Assembly: GCF_003143755.1 (NCBI RefSeq)
Contig: NZ_QFRI01000001.1
Location: forward strand, 1,572,051 to 1,636,050
Length of the DNA stretch: 64,000 bases
Source: Algibacter marinivivus
Lineage (GTDB): Bacteria; Bacteroidota; Bacteroidia; Flavobacteriales; Flavobacteriaceae
Direction of reading: 5' to 3'
Every line of letters begins with the position of its first letter. The stretch's first letter is position 1. The notes beneath the pieces are model-generated. The model worked only from the letters and a program-made list of their open reading frames with translations. It was not told the DNA's origin and ran no database searches. Positions 16,012 to 49,376 of the stretch are shown piece after piece. The translations under genes were made by a program, and so were the position numbers.

Positions 16012-16041
16012 CAGTCACAAAGTTCAAATACTTATTGAAAT

Positions 16042-16163
16042 GTTATCAAGAAAGGTGGAGGGATTAGACCCTGTGAAACCTTAGCAACCCTTTAAACTTA
16101 TTAAAGAAGGTGCTAAATTCTACTTGAATTACCAATTCATTTATTGGTGTTTAGATAGATAAC
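16042..16163 (+). ncRNA. SAM-I (S-box) riboswitch upstream of metY
   Basis: P1 is formed by GTTATC (16042-16047) and GATAAC (16158-16163). The conserved core follows the S-box pattern: AAGAAAGGTGGAGGGATT, ACCCTGTGAAACC, TTAGCAACC, then GAAGGTGCTAAATTC, with a variable P4 arm TACTTGAATTACC...GGTGTTTA. It senses S-adenosylmethionine and lowers methionine-operon expression when SAM is plentiful. A hairpin at 16220-16239, TACGCTAC-ATGA-GTAGCATA followed by TTTTGACTTTT, is the best candidate for the expression platform; a long U-tract is lacking, so this part is uncertain. Confidence 0.93.
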
Positions 16164-16219
16164 CCCAAAAAATTACTTTATGTAATTTTAATAATTCTTT
16201 ATAACATTTTTCTATTGAG

Positions 16220-34229: not shown

Positions 34230-34255
34230 TGCCTGAGTTCATTAACGTAATTATT

Positions 34256-34362
34256 GTTATCAAGAAAGGTAGAGGGATTAGACCCGTTGAAGCCTTGGCA
34301 ACCCTTTAACTTTTAAAGAAGGTGCTAAATTCTACTAATATAATTTGTATTAGAAAGATAAC
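34256..34362 (+). ncRNA. SAM-I (S-box) riboswitch upstream of metH
   Basis: P1 is GTTATC (34256-34261) with GATAAC (34357-34362). The core AAGAAAGGTAGAGGGATT, ACCCGTTGAAGCC, TTGGCAACC, GAAGGTGCTAAATTC matches the riboswitch at 16042 nearly base for base, and the P4 arm differs. Compared with the first copy the P3 segment reads GACCCGTTGAAGCC instead of GACCCTGTGAAACC. A 7-bp hairpin GAAAAGT/ACTTTTC (34363-34384) follows directly, without a U-tract, so the mode of control (transcription or translation) is not settled. Confidence 0.93.
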
Positions 34363-34412
34363 GAAAAGTATTTCACAACTTTTCTTGATGACATATAGAT
34401 AATAAATATCGA

Positions 34413-45370: not shown

Positions 45371-46270
45371 CTAACCAACAGAAGTCAATTCCCTAAATAA
45401 ACTCTCCAAACTCGCATTTTTCTGATTTAATTGCAAGATTTTAAGTTGATTATCATGTGCAAAATCAAATACATAAGAGCGCATATCATCAACAGTTTTA
45501 AAAGTAATCTCATAAACAAAATCATATGTATTTACTACTTTAGATACTTTAGGGAGTTTCAATAAAAAAGCATCCTCCACACGATAATCAAATTCCACAA
45601 TTACAACTTGTTCTTTTTCGTCGCGAAGTTCTTTTAATTTTTTATCGGCAACAATTTCTCCTTTATTAATAATAATTACTCGGTCGCACATGGCTTCTAC
45701 CTCTTGCATAATATGTGTTGAAAGAAATACTGTTTTAGTTTTTCCGATGGATTTTATAAGGTTTCTAATATCTACTAATTGGTTTGGGTCTAAACCTGTA
45801 GTTGGCTCATCTAAAATTAAAACCTCAGGATCATGCAATAAAGCATTTGCTAAACCTACACGTTGGCGATAGCCTTTTGAGAGCTGACCAATTTTTTTAT
45901 GTGCTTCAGGTGCTAATCCAGTTAATTCAATAACCTCGTCAATACGTTGTTTACTAACACCATATATATTGGCATTAAAAGCTAAATACTCTTTAACATA
46001 TTGTTCTAAATATAAAGGATTATGTTCTGGAAGATAACCAACACTTTTTTGAACATCATTTTTATCACCTTCAACATTAAAGCCATTTACTTTGGCTTCA
46101 CCAGAATTGGCATTTAAATATGTTGTTAAAATTTTCATCATGGTTGATTTTCCAGCGCCATTCGGACCTAAAAAACCAACAATTTCAGGTTTGTCAACTT
46201 TAAAGGATACATTATTTAGGGCTTTTTGGGTTCCGTAAATTTTTGACACCTCTTTAACTTCAATAGACAT
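45371..46270 (-). CDS. gldA: Gliding-motility ABC transporter ATP-binding protein GldA
   Basis: 299-residue ABC ATPase. Walker A GPNGAGKSTMM (about 35-45), signature LSKGYRQRVG and Walker B VLILDEPTTGLD are intact. The N-terminus MSIEVKEVSKIYGTQKALNNVSFKV and the C-terminal half after the ATPase core closely resemble GldA of Flavobacterium as I remember it. GldA works with GldF and GldG, which are not adjacent, as is common. Other drug- or Na-export ABC ATPases are the alternative. A minus-strand -7 box TATTTTTG lies at 46294-46287. Confidence 0.85.
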   Translation of the reverse strand: MSIEVKEVSKIYGTQKALNNVSFKVDKPEIVGFLGPNGAGKSTMMKILTTYLNANSGEAKVNGFNVEGDKNDVQKSVGYLPEHNPLYLEQYVKEYLAFNANIYGVSKQRIDEVIELTGLAPEAHKKIGQLSKGYRQRVGLANALLHDPEVLILDEPTTGLDPNQLVDIRNLIKSIGKTKTVFLSTHIMQEVEAMCDRVIIINKGEIVADKKLKELRDEKEQVVIVEFDYRVEDAFLLKLPKVSKVVNTYDFVYEITFKTVDDMRSYVFDFAHDNQLKILQLNQKNASLESLFRELTSVG

Positions 46271-46375: not shown

Positions 46376-46405
46376 TTTGATTTCTTAAAATAATAATTAC
46401 TTTAG
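46376..46405 (+). promoter_or_regulatory. Probable promoter of the pheA leader
   Basis: TTTG at 46376-46379, then 18 bp, then TACTTTAG at 46398-46405, one base from TAnnTTTG. Transcription would begin near 46411, only a few bases before the leader-peptide ATG at 46416. Confidence 0.5.
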
Positions 46406-46415
46406 CCTCATAATT

Positions 46416-46499
46416 ATGACAATGACAACAGGTTATACATATTTTAGCAACTGGTTCTATTTCTTTTTTAGCAAAAGAAACGAGACGTTGTATGTATAA
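46416..46499 (+). CDS. pheL-like: Phe/Tyr-rich leader peptide of the pheA operon
   Basis: 27-codon open frame just downstream of the promoter. Residues 7-18 read YTYFSNWFYFFF: five Phe, three Tyr and one Trp in twelve codons, including the run F-Y-F-F-F. The product is then charged and ends ETLYV-stop at 46497-46499. This is the arrangement of amino-acid attenuation leaders (the E. coli pheA leader also has runs of Phe codons). The ribosome position on these codons would report charged tRNA-Phe/Tyr. It is too short for ordinary gene calling. Confidence 0.82.
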   Translation: MTMTTGYTYFSNWFYFFFSKRNETLYV

Positions 46500-46551
46500 T
46501 TTATAAACTATAAATTGAATATGAGTCTCGATGAAAATCGGGACTTTTTTT
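46481..46551 (+). promoter_or_regulatory. Transcription attenuator of pheA: antiterminator and terminator
   Basis: Terminator: AGTCTCGAT (46524-46532), loop GAAA, ATCGGGACT (46537-46545), nine pairs including one T-G, then a run of T to 46551. Competing antiterminator: CGAGAC (46481-46486, inside the leader peptide codons 22-24) pairs with GTCTCG (46525-46530), with a nested perfect 8-bp stem AATTTATA/TATAAATT (46498-46505 and 46509-46516). A ribosome stalled on the Phe/Tyr codons leaves 46481 free and prevents termination. One that reaches the stop codon covers it and allows termination. Confidence 0.85.
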
Positions 46552-46553
46552 AT

Positions 46554-47381
46554 ATGATTAAAACGATAGCCATACAAGGAGCTGAAGGTTCTAACCATCA
46601 TAAAGTTGCCAGAGACTTTTATGGTAATGATATTGCATTAAAAGAATGTTTGTCTTTTGATGTATTGGTAGATAGTTTATTGAAAAACGAATCTAGTCAG
46701 GCAGTTATGGCTATAGAAAACACTATTGCTGGTTCTATAATTCCTAATTACGCGTTGATTGATAAAAACAACTTGCATATTTGTGGAGAGCGTTATTTAA
46801 ACATTCATCATCATTTAATGGCATTACCGGGTCAAAAAATGGAAGATATAAAAGAAGTGTGTTCTCATCCTATGGCGTTGTTACAATGTAAAGAGTTTTT
46901 TAAAAAACACTCGCATATAAAATTGGTTGAGGATGTTGATACAGCTGAAGTTGCTAAAAGAATAGCAAAAGATAAATTGGTTGGAGTAGCAGCAATTGCC
47001 CCAAAGATTGCATCAGAAATTTTTGGACTTGAGGTTATTGAAGATGAAATTCAAACTATAAAAGATAACTCTACACGGTTTGTTATTATTCAGACAGAAC
47101 AGCCAAATAATGGCATAGACCAAATTAATAAAGCGTCATTAAAATTTCAGTTAGATCATAAAAGAGGAAGTCTTGCCGCAATTTTAAACGTATTGAGTGA
47201 TTGTAAAATGAATTTAACAAAAATTCAATCGTTACCAGTTATTGAAACACCTTGGAAATATGCCTTTTTTGTTGATGTAACTTTTGAAACTTATGAAGAT
47301 TATAAAAAAGCAAAGTCCATAATAGAAATTATGGCAACAGAATTTAAAGTATTAGGGGAATATAAAAATGCAAAGCTATGA
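46554..47381 (+). CDS. pheA: Prephenate dehydratase
   Basis: Converts prephenate to phenylpyruvate. I place the start at ATG 46554 (MIKTIAIQGAEGS), 2 bp after the attenuator T-run; the open frame further upstream runs through the terminator and is not translated sense. 275 residues: catalytic PDT domain (1-180; VMAIENTIAGSI, and NSTRFVII carrying the catalytic Thr) followed by an ACT domain (about 195-275; KRGSLAAILNVL and NLTKIQSLP for Phe binding). So it is probably feedback-inhibited by Phe as well as attenuated. Overlaps the next gene by 4 bp (ATGA). Confidence 0.93.
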   Translation: MIKTIAIQGAEGSNHHKVARDFYGNDIALKECLSFDVLVDSLLKNESSQAVMAIENTIAGSIIPNYALIDKNNLHICGERYLNIHHHLMALPGQKMEDIKEVCSHPMALLQCKEFFKKHSHIKLVEDVDTAEVAKRIAKDKLVGVAAIAPKIASEIFGLEVIEDEIQTIKDNSTRFVIIQTEQPNNGIDQINKASLKFQLDHKRGSLAAILNVLSDCKMNLTKIQSLPVIETPWKYAFFVDVTFETYEDYKKAKSIIEIMATEFKVLGEYKNAKL

Positions 47382-48523
47382 TTGAGGTTGCAAAGAGATT
47401 GCAAACGGTTGAAGAATATTACTTTTCTAAAAAATTAAGAGAAGTAAATTTGCTTATTGCAAGTGGTAAGCCTATAATAAATCTTGGTATTGGTAGTCCA
47501 GATTTGCAACCACCAAAAAAGGTTTTATCTGCTATTTCTGCTAGTTTTGAAAACCCTATTGCTCATAAATATCAAAGTTACCAAGGGCTTCCAGAGCTTA
47601 GAGATGCTATTTCTAGGTTTTACAAAGAACATTTTTCGGTAAATCTAAGTTCAGGTACAGAAATACTTCCATTAATGGGAAGTAAAGAAGGGATTATGCA
47701 CATTTCTATGACTTATTTAAATGAAGGGGATGAAGTTTTAATTCCAAATCCAGGATATCCAACATATCAATCTGTAACAAAATTAGTTGGTGCTAAAGGT
47801 GTTTTATATGAATTGGATGCTGCAAATAATTGGATGCCAAATTTTGATGCTTTAGAAAAAACGGATTTAAGTAAAGTGAAACTCATGTGGGTTAATTATC
47901 CGCATATGCCAACAGGAGCAAAACCAAGTAAAACGGTTTTTGAAGAATTAGTAGCTTTTGGTAAACGCAACAATATTTTAATTGTAAATGATAATCCTTA
48001 CAGTTTTATATTAAACGATAACCCAACAAGTATTTTAAGTGTTGAAGGCGCCAAGGATGTGTGTTTAGAACTAAACTCTTTAAGCAAAACGTTTAACATG
48101 GCTGGATGGCGTGTAGGAATGGTAATGGGAGCCAGCGAGCATATTAATAATATTTTAAAAGTAAAAAGTAATATGGATTCTGGTATGTTTTACGGCATAC
48201 AAAAAGGAGCCATTGAAGCTTTAAAATGTTCAAATATGTGGTTTGCTACGTTAAATAGTGTTTATGAAGAACGTAGAAATTTAGTTTGGCAATTAGCAGA
48301 TGCGCTTAATTGTACTTACGATAAAGAAGCTTCTGGACTTTTTGTTTGGGCAAAATTACCAGCATATTTAAAGTCAGAAGAGTTTATAGATTTGGTGTTA
48401 AAAGAGAATCATATTTTCATTACACCAGGGACTATTTTTGGAACTAAAGGAGAAGGATATATAAGATTTTCTTTATGTGCTTCAACAGAAGTATTAGAAG
48501 AAGCCATAGCGCGAGTTAAATAA
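47378..48523 (+). CDS. Aromatic/aspartate-type aminotransferase (class I, PLP)
   Basis: 381 residues. LGIGSPDLQPPKKVLSAI, YQSYQGLPELRDAISRFY, PNPGYPTYQSVTKLVGA, VNYPHMPTGAKPS and the Schiff-base Lys in ELNSLSKTFNMAGWRVGMVMG fit the class I fold. Overlap with pheA and position before tyrA suggest that it makes phenylalanine and tyrosine from their keto acids. LL-diaminopimelate aminotransferase-like enzymes share these motifs, so exact specificity is open. Confidence 0.88.
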   Translation: MIEVAKRLQTVEEYYFSKKLREVNLLIASGKPIINLGIGSPDLQPPKKVLSAISASFENPIAHKYQSYQGLPELRDAISRFYKEHFSVNLSSGTEILPLMGSKEGIMHISMTYLNEGDEVLIPNPGYPTYQSVTKLVGAKGVLYELDAANNWMPNFDALEKTDLSKVKLMWVNYPHMPTGAKPSKTVFEELVAFGKRNNILIVNDNPYSFILNDNPTSILSVEGAKDVCLELNSLSKTFNMAGWRVGMVMGASEHINNILKVKSNMDSGMFYGIQKGAIEALKCSNMWFATLNSVYEERRNLVWQLADALNCTYDKEASGLFVWAKLPAYLKSEEFIDLVLKENHIFITPGTIFGTKGEGYIRFSLCASTEVLEEAIARVK

Positions 48524-48524
48524 G

Positions 48525-49376
48525 ATGAAAAATATATACGCCATAGGAGTCGGTTTAATAGGAGGTAGTCTTGCTATAGATATCAAGAAGCATAATCCAG
48601 ATGTGATTATTCATGGTATTAGCCGAAAGGATGCTACGCTTAATACGGCTTTAGAGTTAGGCTTAATTGATAAAAAGGCAACTCTAGATGATATTAAAAA
48701 TGCCGATTTGGTTATAGTTTCTATTCCAGTGGATGCCACTGTAAAATTATTGCCTACTATTTTAGATAAAATATCAGATTCAGGTTTAGTTGTTGATGCA
48801 GGTTCAACAAAAGAAGATATTTGTAAGGTTGTAGAGAACCATCCAAAACGAAGAAATTTTTTAGCAATGCATCCTATTGCAGGTACCGAGCATTCTGGAC
48901 CAACTGCAGCTATTGAGGGACTATTTGTTGGCAAAACAAATATTGTTTGTGAGGTTGAAAAAACCACTTTTAAATTACAAGAAAAGGCATTAAAACTATT
49001 TACTGAGATAGGAATGCGTATACGATATATGAATCCTATTGAGCATGATAGGCATATAGCTTACGTTTCGCATTTATCGCATATTAGTTCTTTTATGCTT
49101 GGAAAAACAGTCATTGAAAAAGAAAAAAACGAACGTGATATTTTTGATATGGCTGGTAGTGGATTTGCATCTACAGTAAGGCTTGCCAAAAGTTCGCCAG
49201 AAATGTGGACACCAATTTTTAAACAAAATAAAACTAATGTTATTGAAACATTAGAAGAGTATATAAACAATCTCACGCATTTTAAAGACTTAATGAAAAA
49301 AGATGATTTTGATGCTATTTTTAATGAGATGGAAAGTACAAATCACATAAAAGATATATTAAACGGAATTAGTTAA
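48525..49376 (+). CDS. tyrA: Prephenate dehydrogenase
   Basis: NAD(P)-dependent conversion of prephenate to 4-hydroxyphenylpyruvate. 283 residues. The nucleotide-binding IGVGLIGGSLAIDIKK is at the N-terminus; AGSTKEDICKVVE, AMHPIAGTEHSGPTAA (His in the active site) and HDRHIAYVSHLSHISSFML are conserved, as is GSGFASTVRLAKSSPEMW. No ACT or chorismate mutase domain is fused; the mutase is on the next gene. One bp after the aminotransferase. Confidence 0.94.
   Translation: MKNIYAIGVGLIGGSLAIDIKKHNPDVIIHGISRKDATLNTALELGLIDKKATLDDIKNADLVIVSIPVDATVKLLPTILDKISDSGLVVDAGSTKEDICKVVENHPKRRNFLAMHPIAGTEHSGPTAAIEGLFVGKTNIVCEVEKTTFKLQEKALKLFTEIGMRIRYMNPIEHDRHIAYVSHLSHISSFMLGKTVIEKEKNERDIFDMAGSGFASTVRLAKSSPEMWTPIFKQNKTNVIETLEEYINNLTHFKDLMKKDDFDAIFNEMESTNHIKDILNGIS

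What the first reader, a model, noticed from the sequence alone, without database searches (positions are those of the whole stretch)
46416..46551. Complete leader-peptide attenuator controlling pheA-aminotransferase-tyrA-DAHP synthase/chorismate mutase
Seen: a 27-codon leader with YTYFSNWFYFFF at residues 7-18, a 9-bp GAAA-loop terminator with a T-run ending 2 bp before the pheA ATG, and an alternative pairing of CGAGAC (46481-46486) with GTCTCG (46525-46530) around a nested 8-bp stem. The CGAGAC strand lies in leader codons 22-24, where a ribosome at the stop codon (46497) would cover it. Known: this is the geometry of Phe/Trp/His attenuation in Proteobacteria. Inference: the organism uses coupled transcription-translation attenuation for the aromatic operon, despite Bacteroidetes initiation lacking Shine-Dalgarno signals and the ATG being only about 5 nt from the predicted transcript start, so the leader may be translated almost leaderlessly.
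Basis: partly seen in the sequence, partly recalled or inferred. Interest (0 to 1): 0.72.

Follow-up and report, generated by a model that had tools for sequence, protein, structure and literature searches.

The report
Aromatic leader-peptide attenuator upstream of pheA
In front of the genes that make phenylalanine and tyrosine, this bacterium carries a short aromatic-rich reading frame and two competing RNA hairpins that very probably let a stalled ribosome switch the genes on, an ordinary mechanism that is well conserved here and was already hinted at in a related flavobacterium.

Summary
An ORF rich in Phe/Tyr/Trp codons (46416-46499) lies between a Bacteroidota-type promoter and pheA, followed by an intrinsic terminator whose 5' arm (GTCTCG, 46525-46530) can instead pair with CGAGAC (46481-46486) near the ORF's end. 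The leader is visible in 135 of 138 family loci and in 22 of 31 loci from other families of the class. Both helices covary. The antiterminator arm starts 9-12 nt after the last aromatic codon in 109 of 124 sequences, while its reading frame and distance to the stop codon vary: the spacing expected if a stalled ribosome frees the arm and a ribosome at the stop codon covers it. The same genome has His-, Trp- and Ile/Val-rich leader ORFs with terminators before hisG, trpE and an ilvD-like gene. Ribosome-mediated transcription attenuation is well supported, though no expression data were available. It is a new member of a known kind: a 2021 Flavobacterium psychrophilum paper already lists a conserved structured element before pheA and 'strong clues' for leader-peptide attenuation. 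Refinements: no protector (1:2) pairing conserved by my test, and a predicted 6 or 12 nt 5' UTR instead of leaderless initiation.

The parts
46376..46405 (+). Bacteroidota sigma-A-type promoter: TTTG (-33) 46376-46379 and TACTTTAG (-7 box) 46398-46405; predicted transcription start near 46410
   Evidence: Consensus match; a like box lies upstream of the leader ATG in 121 of 128 relatives, 81 of these with a full TTTG at -33 (no shuffle control was run for this); box position -12 to -5 from PMC9723704; start not mapped
46416..46499 (+). Leader ORF, 27 codons (25 if started at the second ATG, 46422); regulatory Phe/Tyr/Trp codons at residues 7-18
   Evidence: conserved in relatives; ATG1 or ATG2 kept in close relatives
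46460..46480 (+). Hairpin of the last Phe codons (TTTCTTTT) with AAAAGAAA, just before region 2; possible pause hairpin
   Evidence: 32 nt before region 2 fold to a mean -4.2 against -1.6 kcal/mol for shuffles (124 sequences); role inferred; in this window alone z only -0.8
46481..46486 (+). Region 2: antiterminator 5' arm CGAGAC, 11 nt after the last Phe codon
   Evidence: Pairs with region 3; 94.4% of cells paired, covariation score 0.328 against 0.222 shuffled
46525..46530 (+). Region 3: GTCTCG, shared by antiterminator and terminator
46523..46551 (+). Intrinsic terminator (regions 3:4, stem 46523-46546) and T-run 46545-46551
46554..47381 (+). pheA, prephenate dehydratase with a weak ACT-domain match: first regulated gene
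   Evidence: Pfam PF00800 over cut-off; PF01842 below its cut-off
47378..48523 (+). class I/II aminotransferase gene of the operon
   Evidence: Pfam PF00155; a relative lies in the fetched flank beside pheA in 38 of 38 family and 80 of 80 named loci examined
48525..49376 (+). tyrA, prephenate dehydrogenase
   Evidence: Pfam PF02153, PF20463
49387..50469 (+). DAHP synthase / chorismate mutase fusion
   Evidence: Pfam PF00793, PF01817

Best explanation
It is a ribosome-mediated transcription attenuator for the aromatic operon pheA - aminotransferase - tyrA - DAHP synthase/chorismate mutase. RNA polymerase starts near 46410, and a ribosome starts on the leader ORF almost at once. If charged tRNA-Phe, -Tyr or -Trp is short, the ribosome stalls within codons 7-18. 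Even at the last Phe codon its leading edge (about 10 nt past the A-site codon; footprint recalled, not from a call) stops just short of CGAGAC (46481). CGAGAC then pairs with GTCTCG (46525-46530) before the terminator's 3' arm is made, and transcription runs on into pheA. If aromatic amino acids are plentiful, the ribosome reaches the stop codon (46497-46499), covers CGAGAC, and GTCTCG pairs with CGGGAC (46539-46544), so that transcription ends at the T-run. Shown by sequence and comparison: the ORF, both helices, their covariation, the spacing, and the position before pheA. Inferred: the transcription start, translation of the leader, stalling, termination and response to amino acids. Leaders carry Phe, Tyr and often Trp codons, so the switch probably reads all three products of the pathway.
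For: Leader and terminator by strict script in 128 of 137 family loci; with by-eye cases and the later-added G075 the leader is visible in 135 of 138. Named relatives (a set that overlaps the first): 79 of 80 by script, and the 80th (L254) has the ORF 523 nt upstream. Other families of the class: 10 of 12 and 12 of 19; other classes of the phylum: 2 of 7. Aromatic-ORF null: 7 of 2,720 shuffles against 127 of 136. Covariation of 2:3 and 3:4. At the central pair, region 2/region 3 is A-U in 70 and G-C in 47 of 122 sequences; in 31 sequences region 4 has gone to a G-U pair while 2:3 stays A-U. Region 2 starts 9-12 nt after the last aromatic codon in 109 of 124, while its codon phase (68/35/21) and its place relative to the stop codon (-28 to +4) vary: the RNA arm, not a peptide motif, keeps its distance. 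Folding: with the ribosome at the last aromatic codon and region 4 not yet made, 2:3 is in the MFE in 122 of 124; with the ribosome at the stop codon the terminator forms in 124 of 124. In close leader pairs (not independent of one another) aromatic codons change into other aromatic codons 49 times and into anything else 12 times. The gene upstream is divergent, so the terminator is not that gene's end. His-, Trp- and Ile/Val-rich leader ORFs with terminators precede hisG, trpE and an ilvD-like gene in the same genome.
Against: No expression, term-seq or codon-mutant data were available. PMC1262725 (passages) reports that mutating candidate regulatory codons before Streptomyces ilvB had no effect, so such anatomy is not proof. 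Sequence by sequence the 2:3 helix is less striking: it beats all 40 shuffles in 57% of 128 sequences (mean score 16.0 against 6.4, median z 1.8), four give no helix of at least 5 pairs, and in L075 and L103 the best helix is no better than shuffles. Region 2 was there taken as the best-pairing stretch. In one search two of five measures are not extreme (32 and 43 of 500 shuffles as high). The tree-based independent-pairs test had no power: 2 and 1 supported pairs. At equilibrium with region 4 present the terminator state wins in 108 of 124, so the switch must be kinetic. Three family loci (L107, L118, L128) show no leader, and 19 of 149 family genomes had no match to this PheA and were not examined.
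Confidence: 0.92

Rival explanations
1. The leader peptide itself senses something: a nascent-chain arrest peptide (tna- or erm-like) stalls the ribosome, and stalling is not due to tRNA charging.
For: The core of the peptide is very similar across close relatives.
Against: The aromatic run changes order, length and make-up; aromatic-to-aromatic swaps are common; the sequence after the run differs between groups and carries the RNA arm in different reading frames.
Confidence: 0.04
2. The 5' region is a constitutive or partial terminator that sets a fixed basal level, with no regulation through the ORF.
For: A terminator alone would explain 3:4; it is the stable state at equilibrium in 108 of 124.
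Against: Does not explain the conserved aromatic ORF, the covarying 2:3 helix or the kept codon-to-arm distance.
Confidence: 0.02
3. A riboswitch, T-box or protein-bound leader controls the operon.
For: Only sub-threshold Rfam matches here, lowest E-value 0.26 for a PyrR site.
Against: No Rfam family reaches its gathering score at this locus or in the 10 relatives given. An undescribed structure outside the aligned part (region 2 to terminator) was not searched for.
Confidence: 0.01

Closest known systems
5' structured element upstream of pheA in Flavobacterium psychrophilum (PMC9723704: passages, section 19 and section 15 part 1 read; supplements not readable)
   Same: Same gene; conserved in other Flavobacteriaceae genera; no Rfam match; the paper reports strong clues for leader-peptide attenuation before amino-acid operons and also names hisG
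   Different: The parts read give no leader sequence, helices, codon geometry or taxonomic range; whether the supplement does is not known to me
E. coli pheA attenuator (pheL; recalled) and the trp/his prototypes
   Same: Leader ORF rich in regulatory codons, antiterminator against terminator, same first gene
   Different: Mixed Phe/Tyr/Trp codons instead of Phe alone (recalled); operon also holds tyrA and DAHP synthase; no protector pairing conserved by my test; very short predicted 5' UTR; no match to an Rfam leader family
Actinobacterial trp and ilvB leader attenuators (PMC1262725, abstract and passages)
   Same: Predicted by the same comparative logic outside Proteobacteria
   Different: Other amino acids and phylum; that paper reports no conserved RNA structure before phenylalanine or tyrosine operons in Actinobacteria

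Membership tests
Ribosome-mediated transcription attenuators (class defined by mechanism) | Short leader ORF with codons for the amino acids that the operon makes | tested here: met
   ORF and conservation shown; translation itself inferred
Ribosome-mediated transcription attenuators (class defined by mechanism) | Intrinsic terminator before the first gene | tested here: met
   (sequence and covariation; termination not measured)
Ribosome-mediated transcription attenuators (class defined by mechanism) | Mutually exclusive antiterminator sharing a strand with the terminator | tested here: met
Ribosome-mediated transcription attenuators (class defined by mechanism) | Ribosome at regulatory codons frees, and at the stop codon covers, the antiterminator arm | tested here: met
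   Distances and folding: 114 of 124 arms start at least 9 nt, 91 of 124 at least 10 nt after the last aromatic codon; 122 of 124 at least partly, 103 of 124 fully under a ribosome at stop; footprint size recalled
Ribosome-mediated transcription attenuators (class defined by mechanism) | Read-through rises when the cognate amino acid is scarce | not testable with these tools
   No expression data
E. coli trp-type four-region layout (recalled prototype, not needed for the class) | Protector (1:2) pairing that hides the antiterminator arm when the leader is not translated | tested here: not met
   Ungapped pairing of the arm with upstream leader is no better than shuffles (8.4 against 9.1, 124 sequences). 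In this window a hairpin 46446-46492 does tie up part of the arm (-9.6 kcal/mol, z -1.3)
Known Rfam families, Phe_leader and T-box among them (names recalled) | Match at the family's gathering score | tested here: not met
   no leader or T-box match at this locus or, at gathering score, in the 10 relatives given
F. psychrophilum pheA 5' element of PMC9723704 | Same element (orthologous structure) | tested here: inconclusive
   Same gene and family, but that element's sequence could not be read here

The most novel reading that the evidence does not exclude
Bacteroidota have a lineage-wide, two-state aromatic attenuator without a protector hairpin: its default when untranslated is read-through, it integrates Phe, Tyr and Trp charging in one run of mixed codons, and it works with Shine-Dalgarno-free initiation on a 5' UTR of mostly about 6-14 nt. 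It would show that transcription and translation are tightly coupled in this phylum.
Probability: 0.3. Interest if true: 0.55.

Novelty: new member of a known kind. Interest (0 to 1): 0.4.

Why it matters
If right, core amino-acid operons of a large and understudied group are run by ribosome-mediated attenuation, so ribosome and polymerase must keep close company there even without Shine-Dalgarno initiation. The element is well conserved, easy to test in a laboratory flavobacterium, and gives a natural reporter of coupling, a sharp prediction for untranslated leaders (on instead of off), and a template for annotating unmarked leader ORFs before his, trp and ilv operons.

Tried and rejected
Rfam at gathering and at E up to 10 gave nothing relevant at this element. 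MAFFT on whole leaders (A1; 42 of 128 sequences) misaligned the antiterminator arm by one base between groups, so pair counts on it (166 of 252 cells for 2:3) were set aside. They were replaced by A2, cut by a rule that does not use the 2:3 pairing (from 6 nt after the last aromatic codon to the terminator end). A2 holds 126 of 128 sequences; I left out L008 and L011 as near-copies of L006 and L010. The tree test for independent covariation was inconclusive: plain parsimony on a quick 98-residue tree gives 9 changes in region 2 and 10 in region 3 at the central pair, but the paired test lacked supported pairs. A conserved protector hairpin was tested for and not found (ungapped helices against mononucleotide shuffles). 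The leaderless reading was tested and weakened. No covariance model was built, no protein structure was predicted and no R-scape run was possible.

Rows dropped or odd: G075 was missed in the first fetch and added later, read by eye only. L021, L124 and L131 failed the strict terminator rule but show one by eye. L064 starts inside the leader and is counted as having it. L107, L118 and L128 have none in the stretch fetched. In one search loci of minus-strand matches were read unflipped; corrected from then on. In one search two of the 14 printed rows (L003, L008) came out off register and were not used. Genomes without a match to this PheA were not examined: 19 of 149 in the family, 78 of 109 in the class, 16 of 118 in the phylum. 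Of the 102 phylum genomes with a match only those of the best 30 places were fetched.

Literature: 9 full-text searches, listings of at most 20 papers seen. Opened: PMC9723704 (passages, section 19, section 15 part 1), and passages only of PMC4833913, PMC2965389, PMC1262725 and PMC1183508. Of these only PMC9723704 bears on the locus. Searches for ribosome-mediated attenuation with Bacteroidetes, leader peptide with Bacteroidota and attenuation and leader peptide with Phe and Tyr codons returned no paper in this library; most subscription papers are not in it.

Full report
What is there. Between a divergent ABC-transporter gene (45371-46270, minus) and pheA (46554) lie a Bacteroidota-type promoter, a short ORF and a terminator. 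The ORF 46416-46499 reads MTMTTGYTYFSNWFYFFFSKRNETLYV*. Its last Phe codon of the run ends at 46469; CGAGAC starts after 11 further nt (46481) and its stop codon is 46497-46499. GTCTCG (46525-46530) can pair with CGAGAC (fold 46480-46531: -14.6 kcal/mol, z -4.0) or with CGGGAC at 46539-46544 (terminator: -13.4 kcal/mol, z -4.7). The T-run ends 2 nt before the pheA ATG. Downstream genes are prephenate dehydratase, an aminotransferase, prephenate dehydrogenase and a DAHP synthase/chorismate mutase fusion. Because the upstream gene is divergent, the terminator acts on transcripts headed into pheA.

More than chance. The collection holds one genome per species. In the genus 10 of 10, and in a family sample 130 of 149, have this pheA: 138 different loci, 137 in the scripts and one (G075) added later. 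A strict script finds leader plus terminator in 128 of 137. Three more have a terminator that the rule missed, two have the leader further upstream, one contig starts inside the leader, and G075 has it by eye: 135 of 138; three (L107, L118, L128) show none. Among 80 named loci, many of them uncultured or metagenome assemblies and some the same contigs as above (Wocania, Algibacter, Tenacibaculum, Polaribacter, Kordia, Cerina and others), the script finds 79, and L254 has the ORF 523 nt upstream. In other families of the class 10 of 12 (L147-149, L151-155, L158-161) and 12 of 19 loci have aromatic leaders, 22 of 31. Of seven loci from other classes of the phylum two have one (L156, L157) and five do not (L162-L166). 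For the 19 loci the threshold was 6 aromatics in 14 codons, which 5% of shuffled family regions reach, four of the 12 sit at that threshold and two had no terminator by the rule, so this count is softer. In 260-nt upstream regions of the family an ATG ORF with at least 8 aromatics in 14 codons is found in 127 of 136, against 7 of 2,720 shuffles.

Two competing helices that covary. A2 (126 sequences) was cut without using the 2:3 pairing. Helix 2:3: 94.4% of cells paired (shuffles 88.7%; slid versions 14-43%), 63 cells changed on both sides (22.4), score 0.328 (0.222), with 5 of 6 pairs showing double changes; two measures are less extreme (32 and 43 of 500 shuffles as high). Helix 3:4: 99.1% paired, 67 doubly changed cells (2.4), score 0.335 (0.215). 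Region 3 thus covaries with both partners, as a shared strand should. At the central pair region 4 has drifted to G-U in 31 sequences while region 2 stays A-U, so at that pair the antiterminator is kept at least as strong as the terminator. Taken one sequence at a time the 2:3 helix is less striking: it beats all 40 shuffles in 57% of 128 sequences, mean score 16.0 against 6.4. A tree-aware test lacked power.

Geometry. Region 2, taken as the best-pairing stretch between the aromatic run and the terminator, starts 9, 10, 11 or 12 nt after the last aromatic codon in 109 of 124 sequences (11 nt in 58). Its codon phase differs between groups (68, 35, 21) and it starts from 28 nt before to 4 nt after the end of the stop codon. 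A peptide function would keep frame and residues; mainly the distance is kept. By the usual ribosome footprint (recalled), a ribosome reading the last aromatic codon stops just short of region 2, and one at the stop codon covers region 2 at least in part in 122 of 124 and wholly in 103. In folding, 2:3 is in the best structure in 122 of 124 when region 4 is not yet made, and the terminator forms in 124 of 124 with the ribosome at stop; with all RNA present the terminator state wins in 108 of 124 and the antiterminator in 16, so the switch has to be decided during transcription.

What it senses. Leaders carry on average 5.2 Phe, 3.2 Tyr and 0.7 Trp codons up to the end of the run; Phe and Tyr occur in all 128, Trp in 86. 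In close pairs of leaders (113 overlapping pairs, 1,047 aromatic codon comparisons) there were 53 synonymous changes, 49 changes to another aromatic and 12 to anything else. This fits an operon that makes Phe, Tyr and the common precursor.

Where it departs from the textbook. Pairing of region 2 with earlier leader sequence is no better than mononucleotide shuffles (8.4 against 9.1), so I find no conserved protector hairpin. Without a ribosome and before region 4 is made, 2:3 is in the best structure in 82 of 124, not in 42, and it is in this window: the untranslated default may be read-through. A hairpin of the Phe codons with the following A-rich stretch is more stable than shuffles on average (-4.2 against -1.6 kcal/mol), but in this window alone it is not remarkable (z -0.8); it may be a pause site. 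With the published box position the 5' UTR is 6 nt to ATG1 or 12 nt to ATG2; close relatives keep one, the other or both, and the family median distance from box to the script's ATG is 17 nt (121 of 128 with a box), about 13 nt of UTR.

Same genome, other operons. hisG is preceded by MTFIQLHHHFHICSQAK* and a terminator, trpE by MKSILNNTWWWCFRN* and a terminator, and an ilvD-like gene (named by recalled likeness; it lies before the ilvB match) by MKKQILNTISINVIVIISHE* and a terminator. A Thr-rich ORF lies upstream of an aspartokinase gene of bifunctional length, without a clear terminator. These were read in one genome, the first two by eye, and not tested for conservation, but together they suggest that leader-peptide attenuation is a habit of this organism.

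What is known. PMC2965389 (passages) said in 2010 that to its authors' knowledge leader-peptide systems had been shown only in Proteobacteria and Actinobacteria, and added Firmicutes. The present locus is therefore a new member of a known kind, with detail (helices, geometry, range, mixed aromatic codons, no conserved protector) that I did not find in the parts of papers I could read. Whether the element responds to amino acids has not been shown here.

Noticed in passing
L168 (own genome, upstream of trpE): Leader ORF MKSILNNTWWWCFRN* followed by a strong terminator just before trpE: candidate trp attenuator.
   Followed up: partly
L167 (own genome, upstream of hisG): Leader ORF MTFIQLHHHFHICSQAK* followed by a terminator before hisG: candidate his attenuator.
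   Followed up: partly
L177 (own genome, about 370-250 nt upstream of an ilvD-like gene): Ile/Val-rich ORF MKKQILNTISINVIVIISHE* followed by a terminator: candidate ilv attenuator.
   Followed up: partly
L172 (own genome, upstream of an aspartokinase gene of bifunctional length): Thr-rich ORF MIQLNQNTFTTVSFLLKGNASIFGTTTNTTTLWGY* without a clear terminator; possible thr leader.
   Followed up: no
window 16040-16165 and 34254-34364 (+): Two SAM riboswitches by Rfam (73.9 and 93.5 bits).
   Followed up: no
L158 and L161 (other families of the class), within 420 nt upstream of pheA: Two aromatic leader ORFs in tandem before one pheA in each; in L158 both are followed by terminator-like sequence. 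Possibly duplicated attenuators.
   Followed up: no
L147 and L148 (another family of the class): pheA follows closely after another reading frame (aroA-like by recalled likeness) and has no leader of its own, so control may sit further upstream.
   Followed up: no
L156 and L157 (other classes of the phylum): Aromatic leader ORF and terminator before pheA although the genomes belong to other classes than the window's: old inheritance or transfer.
   Followed up: no
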